Below are positions 6,405 to 9,592 of a stretch of DNA of 15,996 nucleotides, in pieces. The DNA is from Synergistaceae bacterium UBA1037. GTDB lineage: Bacteria > Synergistota > Synergistia > Synergistales > Synergistaceae. The stretch lies in contig DCEE01000013.1 of assembly GCA_002316795.1 (NCBI GenBank), forward strand, positions 20,020 to 36,015. Reading direction: 5' to 3'. The number at the start of each line of letters is the position of its first letter. Within the stretch, counting starts at the first letter, position 1. The position numbers and the translations under genes were made by a program. The notes under the pieces were generated by a model. That model was not told where the DNA came from. It did no database searches and was given only the letters and a program-made list of their open reading frames with translations.

Positions 6405-7025
6405 TTGGTGTTTTTTGGTGGCGGAAATATGACGGCGCGTCTGGCTGAACTTCTTCTAAGCCTGCCTGCGGTGCTTTGGGCTATAACTTTTCACGAATTT
6501 TGTCACGGCTATGCCGCTATGAAACTGGGGGATCCGACAGCTAAGATGGACGGCAGGCTAAGCCTGAACCCGCTCCATCACCTTGACCCCATAGGCGCGC
6601 TCTGCCTTCTGCTTTTCAGGTTCGGGTGGGCGAAACCGGTCCCGATCAACCCCGGATATTTCAAGAACCCGAGAAGGGATATGGCTCTGGTGAGTTTGGC
6701 GGGCGCCGCGGGAAACATACTTACGGCTTTTGTATGCGCACAGCTTGTAAAGCTTTTTCCTGCGCTTTTCCAGACCTATGCCGCACAGCAGTTTATCCTG
6801 ATAATGATCTACATGAACGTGGGACTTGCCGCCTTCAACCTTCTGCCCATCCCCCCGCTTGACGGGTCGCGCGTTCTTTACGTGATGCTTCCCTACAAAT
6901 ATATGCATATCTATTACACATTGGAAAGGTACGGGATGTTCGTCATTGTGGCGCTGATGATACTTGGAGTGATCCCTGTCCTGATGAATCCTTTGATGAG
7001 ACTTATCCTCAATGTCATACTATAG
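6405..7025 (+). CDS. Site-2 protease (M50) family membrane metalloprotease
   Basis: This 206-residue integral membrane protein belongs to the small bacterial rhomboid-independent M50 group. The zinc site is HEFCH (residues 30-34) in the first membrane helix, and the third ligand lies in NLLPIPPLDGSR (145-156, Asp 153). GDPTAKMDGRLSLNP and HLDPIGAL are typical of this subfamily. Such enzymes cut substrates inside the membrane, but no substrate can be inferred. AGGGATGTGATC at 6392-6403 matches the extended anti-16S consensus at 10 of 12 positions, which favours the TTG at 6405. An ATG at 6429 would give 198 residues and leave the active site intact. It is followed after 14 bases by surE, probably in one transcript. 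Confidence 0.92.
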   Translation: MVFFGGGNMTARLAELLLSLPAVLWAITFHEFCHGYAAMKLGDPTAKMDGRLSLNPLHHLDPIGALCLLLFRFGWAKPVPINPGYFKNPRRDMALVSLAGAAGNILTAFVCAQLVKLFPALFQTYAAQQFILIMIYMNVGLAAFNLLPIPPLDGSRVLYVMLPYKYMHIYYTLERYGMFVIVALMILGVIPVLMNPLMRLILNVIL

Positions 7026-7039
7026 GCGGTATCAAGTAA

Positions 7040-7858
7040 ATGAATATCCTGCTTACAAATGATGACGGAGTATATTCGATCGGAATACAGACGCTGGCGA
7101 AGAGCCTGACAGAAGCGGGGCACAACGTTCTTCTTGTAGCTCCGGACAGGGAGAGGAGCGGCTGCGGCCATGCCATGACTATGGACAGGCCTGTGCACAT
7201 AAGGAACGTGAACAGACTCTTCCTCTCTGCTGATTTCACAGCCAAGGCCTGCGACGGAACACCTACTGACTGCGTAATAATGGCCATAGACGCAATGGGA
7301 TTTGAACCCGACATGGTCATATCAGGCATAAACCAGGGACCCAACCTGGGTGACGACCTCACCTACTCCGGTACCGTATGCGCTGCTATGGAGGGCGTGA
7401 TCTTCGGCTATCCCTCTATAGCCGTATCGCTCGTCATGAGCTCGAAAGACAAGGAACTGCACAATGAAACGGCGGCTGAGATACTGATGGCGCTTCTTGA
7501 CTGGACAAAAGAGTCTCCTGTCCCGGAGGGGATCCTGTACAACGTCAACGTTCCCAATATCCCTCTCTCGGAGATCAAGGGCGTTTTCGTGACAAGGAAA
7601 GGCATCCGACGCTACGTTGACAAGATAAGGACAGTAAAGACACCTTCCGGCGGGGAGGCCTACTGGATAGGCGGGAACATTGAGGACGACATGTCAGACG
7701 GCACCGACGTATGGGCGGTGGCTAACAATTATGTTTCTGTCACACCTGTGCACATGGAAATGACAAGTTTTGAAACGCAGAGAGATTGCAAGGAAGCCGG
7801 TCTGGAAGCTTATATAGAGACTAAAATCAACAATGATTCGATAACACATAAAAAATAA
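7040..7858 (+). CDS. surE: 5'/3'-nucleotidase SurE
   Basis: The 272-residue protein begins MNILLTNDDGV, the SurE signature with metal-binding Asp8 and Asp9. Ser40 lies in RERSGCGHAMTM, and ISGINQGPNLGDDLTYSGTV (95-114) carries the metal-ligand Asn at 98. SurE removes phosphate from nucleoside 5' or 3' monophosphates, exopolyphosphate and, in E. coli, acts in stationary-phase survival. The length is typical. The start ATG has only a weak AGGCGG upstream, consistent with coupling to the preceding protease gene. No terminator follows. The argG promoter begins 14 bases after its stop. Confidence 0.96.
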   Translation: MNILLTNDDGVYSIGIQTLAKSLTEAGHNVLLVAPDRERSGCGHAMTMDRPVHIRNVNRLFLSADFTAKACDGTPTDCVIMAIDAMGFEPDMVISGINQGPNLGDDLTYSGTVCAAMEGVIFGYPSIAVSLVMSSKDKELHNETAAEILMALLDWTKESPVPEGILYNVNVPNIPLSEIKGVFVTRKGIRRYVDKIRTVKTPSGGEAYWIGGNIEDDMSDGTDVWAVANNYVSVTPVHMEMTSFETQRDCKEAGLEAYIETKINNDSITHKK

Positions 7859-7871
7859 ACGATAGTTTTTG

Positions 7872-7899
7872 TTGACATTTAGGTAATAAGTGATAAAAT
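7872..7899 (+). promoter_or_regulatory. Strong sigma70 promoter of the argG leader
   Basis: A perfect TTGACA (7872-7877), a 16-base spacer and TAAAAT (7894-7899), with an extended -10 TG at 7891-7892. RNA would begin near 7906 and run about 425 bases before the argG start codon. Confidence 0.8.
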
Positions 7900-7943
7900 A
7901 CCACACAGTTTTTAGAAAATACCCTGAAAAGGAGGCTGGAACT

Positions 7944-8054
7944 TTGCATTATACCGCTGTCGAACGAGCACGACGTACCCGACGAATCGACCTTATCACG
8001 CATAACAAATGCGATGACGGGGCCATGGATTCGATCGCTCGGCGACAGAGATAA
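7944..8054 (+). CDS. Candidate arginine-rich leader peptide upstream of the argG T-box
   Basis: AAAAGGAGG (7927-7935) lies 8 bases before a TTG that opens a 36-codon frame ending in TAA at 8052-8054. The peptide reads MHYTAVERARRTRRIDLITH and continues to ARRQR. Eight of 36 residues are Arg, five of them within residues 8-14 (CGA, CGA, CGT, CGA, CGA). CGA is the codon at five of the eight Arg positions, whereas none of the 13 Arg codons I read in argG is CGA. The Arg cluster lies upstream of T-box Stem I and the stop codon lies inside Stem I, so a ribosome's position could control that fold. Leader peptides rich in the regulated amino acid are classic attenuators. That this one is translated is inference from the ribosome site and composition. 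Confidence 0.5.
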   Translation: MHYTAVERARRTRRIDLITHNKCDDGAMDSIARRQR

Positions 8055-8266
8055 AGTGCCATCGGCTGAAAGCACTTTTCGCAGGTAGTATCGAAGTTCC
8101 CGCACCCCAGAGCAGAACCCGAAGAAAGATCGTTTCGATCAAGTAGGGGTCCGGCAGTTTTCCGAAAACAAACTAACCAAGTGGGCGCACAGCGCCAACG
8201 AGGGTGGCACCGCGGGTAAAGTATACTCGTCCCTCTTCCTTAACCGGAAGAGGGACGAGTTTTTTT
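8010..8266 (+). promoter_or_regulatory. T-box riboswitch controlling argG, probable Arg (CGC) specifier
   Basis: The T-box sequence AGGGTGGCACCGCGGG is at 8201-8216, flanked by AACGAG/CTCGT antiterminator arms. Stem I can be drawn: TGC (8010-8012)/GCA (8112-8114), a kink-turn-like GATGA/AGA, GGGG (8019-8022)/CCCC (8105-8108), TTCGAT (8030-8035)/ATCGAA (8090-8095) and AAAGTGC (8053-8059)/GCACTTT (8072-8078), with the conserved apical GGCTGAAAGC. The loop between the CCCC and ATCGAA strands is GTTCCCGCA. The triplet before the final purine is CGC, an Arg codon, matching argG. A GATCG/CGATC hairpin (8128-8140) and a pseudoknot-like Stem II segment follow. Uncharged tRNA should favour read-through into argG. 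The specifier assignment comes from hand-folding. Confidence 0.85.
8225..8266 (+). terminator. Regulated T-box terminator
   Basis: ACTCGTCCCTCTTCC (8225-8239) and GGAAGAGGGACGAGT (8246-8260) form a perfect 15-bp stem with a 6-base loop, followed by a run of seven T. The first arm shares its CTCGT with the antiterminator, so the two folds exclude each other. Confidence 0.93.
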
Positions 8267-8329: not shown

Positions 8330-9592
8330 ATGATGACAGCAGAAAAAAAAGGCAAGGTAGTATTGGCGTACAGCGGAGGACTTGATACCTCAGTGGCGAT
8401 CCCCTGGCTCCACGATCAGGGCTACGACGTAGTGACCCTCACAATGAACGTTGGCCAGCAGGCTGACAATCTTGAGGAGATAAAGGCAAAGGCCTATGCC
8501 GCGGGAGCTGTGAAAGCCTATGTAGTCGACCTGCGTGAGGCCTTCATCGACACCTTCGTATGGCCGGCCCTTAAGGCAAACGCAGTATACCAGGGAGTCT
8601 ATCCCCTCAACTCCGCACTTTCGCGCCCGATGATAGCTCAGGCACTTATCTGGTGTGCCGAGAAAGAGGGAGCCGTCGCAGTGGCTCACGGATGCACAGG
8701 CAAGGGACAGGACCAGGTCCGTATCGAAGTTTGCTGCAACGCGCTCAACCCTGATATCGAAGTCCTTGCTCCCGTCCGTGACTGGGGTTTCACAAGGGAA
8801 GAAGAGATGGACTACGCCGAAGCTCACAACGTTCCGGTGCCGACGACGCGTAAGAGCCCGTACAGCCTCGACGACAACCTCTGGGGCCGTTCGATAGAGT
8901 GCGGCATTCTCGAAGATCCCTGGAACGAACCTCCCAAGGATGCATACGCTCTAACAGCAGATCCCAAGGAAGCTCCCGACGAAGAGGTAACAATCGAGAT
9001 CACATACGAGGCCGGTATCCCCGTAGCGATAAACGGAGAGAAGATGGGGAGCATCGAACTGATAGACTTTATGAACAAGACCGCCGGAAAAGCCGGGTTT
9101 GGAAGGATCGACATGGTCGAAGACAGGCTCGTCGGATTCAAGAGCCGCGAAGTTTACGAGTGCCCCGGGGCCCTGGCACTGATGGAAGCCCACAAGAAGC
9201 TCGAGACTATCACCCTCTCAAAGGACACCCTCAAGACCAAAAAAGAACTTGAGGTGAGGTTCGCGGAGATGGCATACGAAGGCTACTGGTTCTCCCCCCT
9301 GATGGAAGCCGTCCAGGCATTCATGGACAGCACTCAGAAGGCCGTCAACGGGACAGTGAGGATGAAGTTCTACAAGGGCAACGGCATTGTCAACGGAATG
9401 AAGTCCGAGAGCTCCGTCTACAATAAAGCCCTTGCCACATATTCGTCCGGCGACATATTTGACCAGTCAGCCTCTGTAGGATTCATCAAGATCTGGGGAA
9501 TGCCGATAAAGACATGGAGACAGACGCACAAGGAGAAGAACGTCAACCCCATCGATGCGTTTATTACTGCCAAAGGTAAAGACGCCTTCTAG
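8330..9592 (+). CDS. argG: Argininosuccinate synthase
   Basis: The 420-residue cytosolic enzyme joins citrulline and aspartate using ATP, the penultimate step of arginine synthesis. The ATP-binding signature AYSGGLDTSVA is at 13-23. AHGCTGKGQDQVR, the substrate-binding TTRKSPYSLDDNLWGRSIECG and the VYECPGALALMEAH segment are all as in the family. Length is within the usual 400-450. AAGGAGG at 8315-8321 is 8 bases before the ATG at 8330; the ATG directly after it is possible. It is the only gene downstream of the T-box before a repeat region, and no argH follows, so argininosuccinate lyase must be encoded elsewhere. Its TAG overlaps the first base pairs of hairpin element ii. Confidence 0.97.
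   Translation: MMTAEKKGKVVLAYSGGLDTSVAIPWLHDQGYDVVTLTMNVGQQADNLEEIKAKAYAAGAVKAYVVDLREAFIDTFVWPALKANAVYQGVYPLNSALSRPMIAQALIWCAEKEGAVAVAHGCTGKGQDQVRIEVCCNALNPDIEVLAPVRDWGFTREEEMDYAEAHNVPVPTTRKSPYSLDDNLWGRSIECGILEDPWNEPPKDAYALTADPKEAPDEEVTIEITYEAGIPVAINGEKMGSIELIDFMNKTAGKAGFGRIDMVEDRLVGFKSREVYECPGALALMEAHKKLETITLSKDTLKTKKELEVRFAEMAYEGYWFSPLMEAVQAFMDSTQKAVNGTVRMKFYKGNGIVNGMKSESSVYNKALATYSSGDIFDQSASVGFIKIWGMPIKTWRQTHKEKNVNPIDAFITAKGKDAF

What the first reader, a model, noticed from the sequence alone, without database searches (positions are those of the whole stretch)
7906..8266. Arg-rich leader peptide stacked on an Arg T-box: possible two-sensor control of argG
A frame with a strong ribosome site (7927-7935) encodes 8 Arg in 36 codons, five of them within seven codons just before Stem I, and its stop lies inside Stem I. 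If Arg-tRNA is scarce, a ribosome stalled at the cluster leaves Stem I free to bind uncharged tRNA; if plentiful, the ribosome reaches 8052 and would melt Stem I. Both sensors then work in the same direction. T-box leaders rarely have about 100 extra bases and a translated frame in front.
Basis: partly seen in the sequence, partly recalled or inferred. Interest (0 to 1): 0.85.

Follow-up and report, generated by a model that had tools for sequence, protein, structure and literature searches.

The report
Ribosome-gated arginine T-box switch
In many Synergistota bacteria the arginine gene argG carries two stacked starvation sensors in its leader RNA: a conserved short reading frame packed with arginine codons, whose stalled ribosome is predicted to free the first stem of a tRNA-sensing T-box switch right behind it, so that argG would be switched on only when both sensors report scarce arginine.

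Summary
A T-box (RF00230, E 1.2e-14, under Rfam's cut-off) precedes argG; its specifier CGC and UGGC bulge fit the genome's one tRNA-Arg(ACG). A 36-codon frame (TTG 7944, stop 8052) has 8 Arg, five in seven codons, four of them CGA (2.7% of Arg codons in the genome sample). Of 110 argG upstreams read in the phylum, 59 have T-box plus Arg leader, 22 a T-box without, 29 no T-box seen; 0 of 20 non-argG T-boxes have an Arg cluster. New: (1) leader codons follow the T-box specifier: AGR is 56 of 117 leader Arg codons where the specifier is AGA, 20 of 156 where it is CGC/CGT. (2) The Arg-codon stretch pairs with the 5' strand of Stem I. In folding the naked leader shuts lower Stem I (mean 0.02, 50 leaders) and a ribosome on the last Arg codon frees it (0.70); natural leaders block it more than the mean of synonymously recoded ones in 48 of 50. 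Predicted: stalling unlocks Stem I, then uncharged tRNA-Arg antiterminates. No bench test; one subgroup shows no pairing signal.

The parts
7872..7899 (+). sigma-70-like promoter, TTGACA-16-TAAAAT
   Evidence: 11 of 12 matches; 0.8 such sites expected in shuffles
7927..7935 (+). ribosome-binding site AAAAGGAGG of the leader frame
   Evidence: sequence; ribosome-site matches of varying strength in relatives
7944..8054 (+). Arg-rich leader frame, TTG start, TAA stop, 36 codons, 8 Arg
   Evidence: Arg leader in 59 of 110 argG upstreams
7965..7985 (+). Arg cluster CGA GCA CGA CGT ACC CGA CGA (five Arg in seven codons; all read by tRNA-Arg(ACG) by standard decoding)
7957..7969 (+). leader arm of predicted anti-Stem I helix 1 (CTGTCG and CGAGC)
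8037..8048 (+). Stem I arm of predicted anti-Stem I helix 1 (GCTCG and CGACAG), also part of Stem I
7981..7990 (+). leader arm of predicted anti-Stem I helix 2, pairing with 8026-8036
8011..8113 (+). T-box Stem I (K-turn GCGATGA 8011-8017, AG bulge AGAGA 8047-8051, distal GCUG 8065-8068, GAGC 8110-8113)
   Evidence: alignment; motif names from the S2 legend of PMC5794164; K-turn label recalled
8101..8103 (+). specifier codon CGC (Arg), followed by A
   Evidence: alignment; in relatives CGC/CGT (33 of 53 leaders) or AGA (20 of 53), read by eye (L073 and L074)
8117..8155 (+). Stem II region
   Evidence: alignment
8184..8196 (+). Stem III hairpin GGCGC/GCGCC
   Evidence: alignment, sequence
8201..8215 (+). 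T-box sequence AGGGTGGCACCGCGG; bulge UGGC 8205-8208 complements tRNA-Arg(ACG) 3' end GCCA
8225..8266 (+). intrinsic terminator, 15 pairs plus T run; its 5' arm overlaps the antiterminator
8330..9592 (+). argG, argininosuccinate synthase
   Evidence: NF001770 574.8 bits over cut-off 334, TIGR00032 502.7 over 268.2

Best explanation
The 5' leader of argG holds a conserved Arg-rich reading frame directly in front of an arginine T-box, and it is predicted to work as a ribosome-gated T-box: without a stalled ribosome the Arg-codon RNA would pair with the 5' strand of Stem I and keep the tRNA sensor shut. When charged tRNA-Arg runs short, a ribosome halted on the Arg codons would cover that RNA arm; Stem I could then fold, uncharged tRNA-Arg(ACG) would bind specifier CGC and the UGGC bulge, the antiterminator would form and argG would be transcribed. 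When arginine is plentiful the ribosome would pass the cluster and end inside Stem I (stop at 8052), and the leader arm or the ribosome itself would keep Stem I unfolded, so the terminator at 8225-8260 wins. Shown by sequence: the frame, its conservation, the T-box parts, the tRNA match, the match of leader codons to specifier type, and the complementarity. Computed: the folding switch. Inferred: translation, stalling, tRNA binding and the effect on transcription.
For: Conservation: 59 of 110 argG upstreams carry T-box plus Arg leader, in seven of the 11 families sampled. In 53 non-redundant leaders the start lies 95-112 nt before CAGAGA of the AG bulge and every stop lies in Stem I (51 at +9 to +55) or its K-turn (two at -30). 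The best seven-codon stretch has 3 to 6 Arg in all 53; the +1 and +2 frames 0-2 in 103 of 106. Module: promoter to Stem I 101-118 nt in 58 of 59 with a leader, 19-33 nt in 18 of 21 without; of 20 non-argG T-boxes none has more than two Arg in seven codons and 19 have the promoter 16-37 nt away. Same tRNA: in the window genome all 40 tRNA matches were typed and one is tRNA-Arg(ACG), with 3' GCCA complementary to UGGC. Across leaders, AGR is 56 of 117 Arg codons with specifier AGA and 20 of 156 with CGC/CGT; argG's own codons do not explain it (L049: 0 AGR of 14 in argG, specifier AGA, 3 AGR in the leader; L030: 11 of 14 in argG, specifier CGT, 0 in the leader). Pairing: leader plus Stem I 5' strand folds better than recoded leaders with the same peptide in 51 of 53, 17 of 53 at or under 5%; window -35.4 against -24.5 kcal/mol, 0 of 100 as low. 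Switch over 50 leaders: lower Stem I 0.018 naked, 0.29 with the first and 0.70 with the last Arg codon in the A site; naked value below the mean of recoded leaders in 48 of 50 and of dinucleotide shuffles in 48 of 50; window 0.00, 0.70, 0.82. Pair counts: 84.1% of cells paired against 28-41% slid, covariation score above all 500 shuffles (A1); 92.1% against 21-47%, score reached by 6 of 500 (A2). CTCGK next to CAGAGA in 38 of 59 leader loci and 0 of 21 leaderless ones.
Against: No translation, stalling, structure probing or expression data. The 12 leaders of subgroup f1b show no specific pairing signal (means free 0.04, recoded 0.04, shuffled 0.06 over the ten scored; z -0.42). In the window itself recoded leaders also give near-zero Stem I (mean 0.02), so the specificity there rests on the energy test. 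In L030 and L077 even a ribosome on the last Arg codon leaves lower Stem I at about 0. The matched-versus-other-family duplex test is weak (-20.0 against -18.0, many own pairs not ranked best). The A1 structure was taken from one of its own sequences, which favours it over slid versions; sequences are related; A2 has one pair with double changes where shuffles give 1.6 on average; RNAalifold did not find the hairpin on a first alignment of group A. The fold model ignores K-turn, tRNA and kinetics. The in-frame synonymous excess is modest (23% against 16% and 11%). The specifier correlation is not corrected for relatedness; only L122 in f6 is a contrast within a family. CTCGK absence in leaderless loci may reflect other families. 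The TTG start is weak. 22 T-box argG leaders do without the frame.
Confidence: 0.6

Rival explanations
1. Melting only: Stem I folds by default; a ribosome that is not starved runs to the stop inside Stem I and melts it, so the T-box is off; leader RNA pairing plays no part.
For: All 53 stops lie in Stem I or its K-turn although the frame through Stem I differs between families. The f1b group has the frame but no specific anti-Stem I signal.
Against: Natural leaders suppress lower Stem I below the mean of recoded leaders with the same peptide in 48 of 50; CTCGK in Stem I occurs only where a leader exists (38 of 59 against 0 of 21).
Confidence: 0.24
2. Nascent-peptide sensor: the Arg-rich peptide itself stalls the ribosome, for example in response to free arginine, as fungal arginine attenuator peptides do (recalled), and codon identity does not matter.
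For: The core R-x-RRxR recurs as a peptide in several families and the in-frame synonymous share is the highest of the three frames.
Against: Residues outside the Arg cluster vary widely. Codon choice is special: CGA makes up 144 of 238 Arg codons in the best stretches but 0-1 codons in each of 17 argG genes counted and 2.7% in the window genome sample, and AGR share follows the specifier. Odds lowered from 0.08.
Confidence: 0.05
3. Ordinary T-box with a passenger frame: the T-box alone controls argG and the frame is a relic or only protects the RNA.
For: 22 argG T-boxes have no recognised Arg frame, so the T-box can do without it; L016 and L076 have no Arg cluster although they seem to keep much of the spacing by eye.
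Against: Constant length and Arg cluster in seven families; codon choice that follows the specifier; stronger-than-expected pairing with Stem I. Odds lowered from 0.1.
Confidence: 0.08

Closest known systems
T-box riboswitch (Rfam RF00230), transcriptional, Arg specifier
   Same: Stem I with AG bulge, distal GNUG, specifier CGC followed by A, T-box bulge UGGC, Stem III, terminator. The specifier ends in C, the common preference (passages of PMC7583486 and PMC7778990).
   Different: Scores under Rfam's cut-off; an added translated-looking leader of roughly 85 nt lies between promoter and Stem I and is predicted to control whether Stem I folds.
Leader-peptide attenuation (trp/his type)
   Same: Short frame with ribosome site after the promoter, clustered codons of the amino acid concerned, leader codons predicted to pair with a downstream RNA segment (description as in passages of PMC9413887).
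   Different: The RNA segment released by the stalled ribosome is predicted to be the T-box tRNA-binding stem, not an antiterminator; the termination decision stays with the T-box.
B. subtilis at operon (rtpA with leader peptide rtpLP), T-box plus Trp leader peptide
   Same: Two serial sensors of one uncharged tRNA, one a T-box, one a leader peptide (Chen and Yanofsky 2003, 2004: seen only as titles in the reference list of PMC11255114; details recalled).
   Different: Recalled: there the peptide lies downstream of the T-box and controls translation of rtpA. Here it lies upstream and overlaps Stem I.
Leucine-rich attenuator peptide of S. aureus ilv-leu
   Same: A leader peptide where B. subtilis uses a Leu T-box on the same operon (passages of PMC5794164).
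   Different: That leader lacks the conserved Stem I motifs according to the paper; either-or, not stacked.

Membership tests
T-box riboswitch RF00230 | covariance-model match | tested here: inconclusive
   E 1.2e-14 over positions 1-219 of 219, but 67.7 bits under the gathering score 93; 133 of 185 genomes of the phylum have a match at E 0.001 and 47 reach the cut-off
T-box riboswitch RF00230 | Stem I motifs AGVGA, GNUG, GAA...XXXA specifier loop | tested here: met
   AGAGA 8047-8051, GCUG 8065-8068, GAA then CGC A at 8101-8104 (motif list)
T-box riboswitch RF00230 | specifier fits the amino acid of the controlled gene | tested here: met
   CGC = Arg; gene is argG
T-box riboswitch RF00230 | T-box bulge complementary to the cognate tRNA 3' end | tested here: met
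   UGGC 8205-8208 and tRNA-Arg(ACG) ending GCCA
T-box riboswitch RF00230 | competing antiterminator and intrinsic terminator | tested here: met
   terminator 8225-8260 shares CGTCCCT with the antiterminator of the model alignment
T-box riboswitch RF00230 | binds uncharged tRNA | not testable with these tools
   needs binding or transcription assay
leader-peptide attenuator (trp/his type) | short frame with ribosome site and clustered codons of the regulated amino acid | tested here: met
   translation itself untested
leader-peptide attenuator (trp/his type) | leader codons pair with a downstream segment that has a competing partner | tested here: met
   by folding and pair counts only; not seen in subgroup f1b
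leader-peptide attenuator (trp/his type) | the released segment is itself the antiterminator | tested here: not met
   the released segment is the Stem I 5' strand, 8019-8045; T-box sequence and terminator are 8201-8266. Hence: works like an attenuator, not filed as one
at-operon type T-box plus leader peptide | T-box first, leader peptide downstream controlling translation | tested here: not met
   order reversed, frame overlaps Stem I; the defining order is recalled

The most novel reading that the evidence does not exclude
A riboswitch whose aptamer is licensed by translation: ribosome stalling on codons of one tRNA unlocks Stem I, which then tests the same tRNA directly for charging, making a two-key AND gate for arginine starvation that is found in most sampled families of the phylum Synergistota.
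Probability: 0.55. Interest if true: 0.88.

Novelty: new variant of a known kind. Interest (0 to 1): 0.8.

Why it matters
T-boxes are taken as ribosome-independent tRNA sensors and leader-peptide attenuators as ribosome sensors; here one RNA is predicted to put them in series, and leader codons follow the T-box specifier as if both watched the same tRNA. It would show how a ribosome can gate the folding of a riboswitch aptamer, give a natural AND gate that separates slow decoding from uncharged tRNA, and explain why some T-box leaders carry translated-looking extensions. The leaderless argG T-boxes and Acetomicrobium hydrogeniformans ATCC BAA-1850 (a named strain whose record carries the module) make it directly testable.

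Tried and rejected
RNAalifold on a first alignment found no leader hairpin in group A (-2.47) and only part of it in group B (-9.82); the MAFFT alignments with named structures were used instead. The matched-versus-other-family duplex test is weak because CGA-rich leaders pair with any GCTCG strand; I rely on recoding and shuffle controls. A first Stem I probability that averaged all Stem I pairs mixed in the apical hairpin, which both folds allow: observed 0.173, recoded 0.303, shuffled 0.395, observed below the recoded mean in 39 of 53 and below the shuffled mean in 45 of 53; with a ribosome on the third Arg codon it rose in 45 and fell in 1 of 53. It was replaced by lower Stem I pairs only, with three leaders (L020, L029, L074) dropped because fewer than five such pairs were defined. 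In L073 and L074 the 3' end of Stem I was set slightly short. Six near-duplicate leaders (L003, L064, L125, L127, L142, L143) are in the 59 but not in the 53. The automatic frame finder missed or mis-set L010, L029, L079, L080, L131, L133, L135 and L136; their starts were set by hand and their stops recomputed; in L136 the codon at the aligned start is GCG and a GTG lies one codon earlier. The leader and leaderless sets were assembled by hand. L076 was called leaderless although it seems to lie far from its promoter. L090 was first counted as without T-box and moved to leaderless after reading it, hence 22, while 21 loci entered the comparison; three of those 21 lie 82-108 nt from the promoter. 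In one search L031 read 101 nt, which by eye is a wrong anchor. Of the 33 T-box loci (best-scoring ones, capped), one is the window, 9 are argG, 3 had no motif and 20 non-argG ones served as control; L038 has no gene in its stretch and counts as non-argG because its genome's only argG match lies elsewhere. Planctomycete hit L162 of the scan is a chance match by eye; of the 23 hits five were read.

A T-box in front of argG was judged by motif and by eye, not by a covariance search of each upstream, so T-boxes may be missed among the 29 (L075 had only 205 nt). Literature: nothing on a leader frame in front of a T-box in nine searches of the held open-access library; subscription papers are mostly missing, and only passages of the papers named were seen.

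Full report
What is there. The window is a stretch of one contig of genome G000 (1.75 Mb, 64 contigs). Contigs of two same-genus genomes have the same lengths as named Synergistaceae records (298831 bases: G001 and DIWR01000011.1; 20589 bases: G002 and DBRW01000012.1), so the host is a Synergistaceae member by inference. Between surE (7040-7858) and argG (8330-9592) lie a promoter-like site 7872-7899 and a 15-pair terminator 8225-8260. Rfam finds the T-box model end to end at 8005-8237 (67.7 bits, E 1.2e-14, gathering score 93). The alignment puts GCGATGA (K-turn) at 8011, the AG bulge AGAGA at 8047-8051, the specifier CGC at 8101-8103 and the T-box bulge UGGC at 8205-8208.

The frame. TTG 7944 follows AAAAGGAGG (7927-7935) by 8 nt and runs to TAA 8052, 36 codons with 8 Arg. 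Five Arg codons lie in codons 7965-7985. Because Stem I begins near 8011, the frame runs about 44 nt into it. Arg makes up 5.59% of 35452 codons in 103 ORFs of sampled stretches of this genome, and CGA 53 of 1980 Arg codons; P(8 or more of 36) is 7e-4 and P(4 or more CGA of 5) 3e-6. All 40 tRNA matches of the genome fall in stretches typed with ARAGORN: four are tRNA-Arg, anticodons ACG, CCG, CCT and TCT, one each; the assembly is about 90% complete. The ACG tRNA ends in GCCA, complementary to UGGC. By standard decoding this tRNA reads CGU, CGC and, through inosine, CGA, so the specifier and all five cluster codons would report the same tRNA.

Conservation. argG was found in 164 of 185 held genomes of the phylum. 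I read the upstream DNA of 110 of them. 59 have a T-box plus an Arg-rich leader, 22 a T-box without a recognised Arg leader, and in 29 no T-box was seen. Leader-bearing loci fall in families f1, f2, f5, f6, f7, f9 and f10 of the 11 families sampled; leaderless T-boxes in f3 (12), f8 (1), f11 (3) and f1 (6). In the 53 non-redundant leaders the start lies 95-112 nt before CAGAGA of the AG bulge; 51 stops lie +9 to +55 after it, inside Stem I, and the two f2 stops at -30, in the K-turn, although the reading frame through Stem I differs between families. Peptides share an Arg core, for example LHYTAVERARRTRRI (window), MTLTLERRARRIRP, MLASLRIRRARRIRP, MAVTRMRRARRIRP, VLCGRLRRVRRIRPELPE. The best seven-codon stretch has 3 to 6 Arg in all 53; the two other frames reach 0-2 in 103 of 106. 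The in-frame synonymous share of codon differences is 23% against 16% and 11% in the other frames, a modest excess, so it is the Arg codons rather than the whole peptide that are kept.

Leader codons follow the specifier. Reading the specifier place by eye, 33 of the 53 leaders have CGC or CGT (all of f1, and L122 of f6) and 20 have AGA (f2, f5, f7, f9, f10 and the other two of f6) (L073 and L074). In codons 2-17 of the frame AGA or AGG make up 56 of 117 Arg codons in the AGA group (2 or 3 in every leader) and 20 of 156 in the CGC/CGT group (0 in 18, 1 in 10, 2 in 5 leaders), Fisher P 3e-10 without correction for relatedness. Codon use of argG does not explain it: among 17 argG stretches counted, L049 (AGA group) has 0 AGR of 14 but 3 in its leader (L119), and L030 (CGT) has 11 AGR of 14 but none in its leader; CGA occurs 0 or 1 time in each argG. 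Within f6, L122 has CGC and no AGR codon, its two relatives AGA and 2-3 AGR codons. This is what two sensors of one tRNA would show.

The module. The promoter ends 101-118 nt before Stem I (taken as 36 nt before CAGAGA) in 58 of 59 leader loci, and 19-33 nt in 18 of 21 leaderless argG T-boxes, the other three 82-108 nt. Of 20 non-argG T-boxes of the phylum none has more than two Arg in seven codons in front of Stem I, and 19 have the promoter 16-37 nt away; the twentieth (L031) was mis-anchored. A scan of one genome per species (84,980 species) for an exact leader-type Stem I signature gave 23 places, 22 in records named as Synergistota members, among them Acetomicrobium hydrogeniformans; five were read, four show the leader and the planctomycete one does not look like a T-box.

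Leader pairs with Stem I. The minimum-energy fold of the whole leader lacks lower Stem I; it pairs the Arg-codon stretch with the 5' strand of Stem I: in the window 7957-7969 with 8037-8048, 7981-7990 with 8026-8036, 7991-8003 with 8009-8022. In other families GACGAGC of the leader faces GCTCGTC of Stem I. Recoding the leader with synonymous codons, peptide and Stem I kept, makes the fold less stable on average in 51 of 53 leaders (mean z -1.29; 17 of 53 at or under 5%; window -35.4 against -24.5 kcal/mol). Pair counts for the window group (15 sequences) give 84.1% paired cells against 28-41% when slid and a covariation score above all 500 shuffles, with double changes such as G-C to A-U and C-G to U-A next to the CTCG arm; the structure came from one of these sequences, which favours it. 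For other families (19 sequences) 92.1% against 21-47%, covariation score reached by 6 of 500 shuffles, but only one pair with double changes. The sequences are related, so these counts are supportive, not proof.

The computed switch. For 50 leaders with a definable lower Stem I its mean pairing probability is 0.018 in the naked leader, 0.29 with the A site on the first and 0.70 with the A site on the last Arg codon of the cluster, and 0.80 for Stem I alone; it rises by more than 0.05 with the last-codon ribosome in 48 and falls in none. Synonymously recoded leaders average 0.165 and dinucleotide shuffles 0.254; the natural leader is lower than each mean in 48 of 50. In the window the values are 0.00, 0.70 and 0.82. 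Limits: recoded window leaders are also near zero (0.02), L030 and L077 stay near zero even with the ribosome, and the f1b subgroup does not differ from its controls. Some of its leaders pair the ribosome site and start region with Stem I instead, which may be a different gate.

Mechanism. I take the gate model as most likely. Transcription makes leader arm, Stem I 5' strand and Stem I 3' strand in that order, so the leader hairpin would form first. A ribosome starved on the cluster would cover the leader arm and leave everything from about 7978-7996 on free; Stem I could then fold and test tRNA-Arg. A ribosome that is not starved would run to 8052 and end inside Stem I. Both states of plenty (naked or fully translated) would leave Stem I unformed, and termination follows. 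Every step after the sequence facts is inference or folding prediction.

Known kinds. The switch core is a T-box by its motifs, though under Rfam's cut-off. The leader works like a trp/his attenuator, but the released element is the tRNA-binding stem, so I do not file it as one. The nearest two-sensor precedent is the B. subtilis at operon, where the order is, as recalled, T-box then leader peptide. The T-box review PMC7583486 has no occurrence of 'leader peptide' and the TBDB paper none of 'Synergist' in its main text; nine library searches found no description of a leader frame in front of a T-box.

Noticed in passing
L006-L013 (argG leaders of family f1): These T-boxes pass from Stem I almost directly to Stem III; the Stem II element GAAGAAAG...AAGTAG seen in the window is missing by eye.
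   Followed up: no
53 argG leaders, Stem I specifier place: The specifier switches between CGC/CGT and AGA across families, and within f6, together with the Arg codon type in the leader frame.
   Followed up: partly
L016 and L076 (argG leaders): T-box leaders without an Arg cluster although the promoter seems to lie far upstream of Stem I by eye, possibly decayed leader frames.
   Followed up: partly
L134, about 340-390 nt before argG: A terminator-like hairpin followed by a T run lies between a promoter-like site and the T-box of the family-f8 argG.
   Followed up: no
L019, upstream of argG: T-box motif lies 288 nt before argG instead of about 130 in its genus, an insertion of roughly 160 nt between terminator and gene.
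   Followed up: no
L031 and L033 (window's own genome): Two further T-boxes, in front of a transporter operon with an ABC ATPase (L031) and of a threonine-synthase-like gene (L033), gene names by eye, neither with an Arg leader.
   Followed up: partly
L052 and L056: In family f11 leaderless T-boxes much like those of argG precede a carA-like gene (gene name by eye).
   Followed up: no
f1b leaders L020, L021, L024, L066, L067, L070: Here Stem I pairs best with the ribosome site and start region of the leader frame, suggesting a variant gate that hides the leader's own translation start.
   Followed up: partly
G029:C48:1819-3006 and 6978-8165: Two argG copies with the same score on one contig; duplication or assembly artefact.
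   Followed up: no
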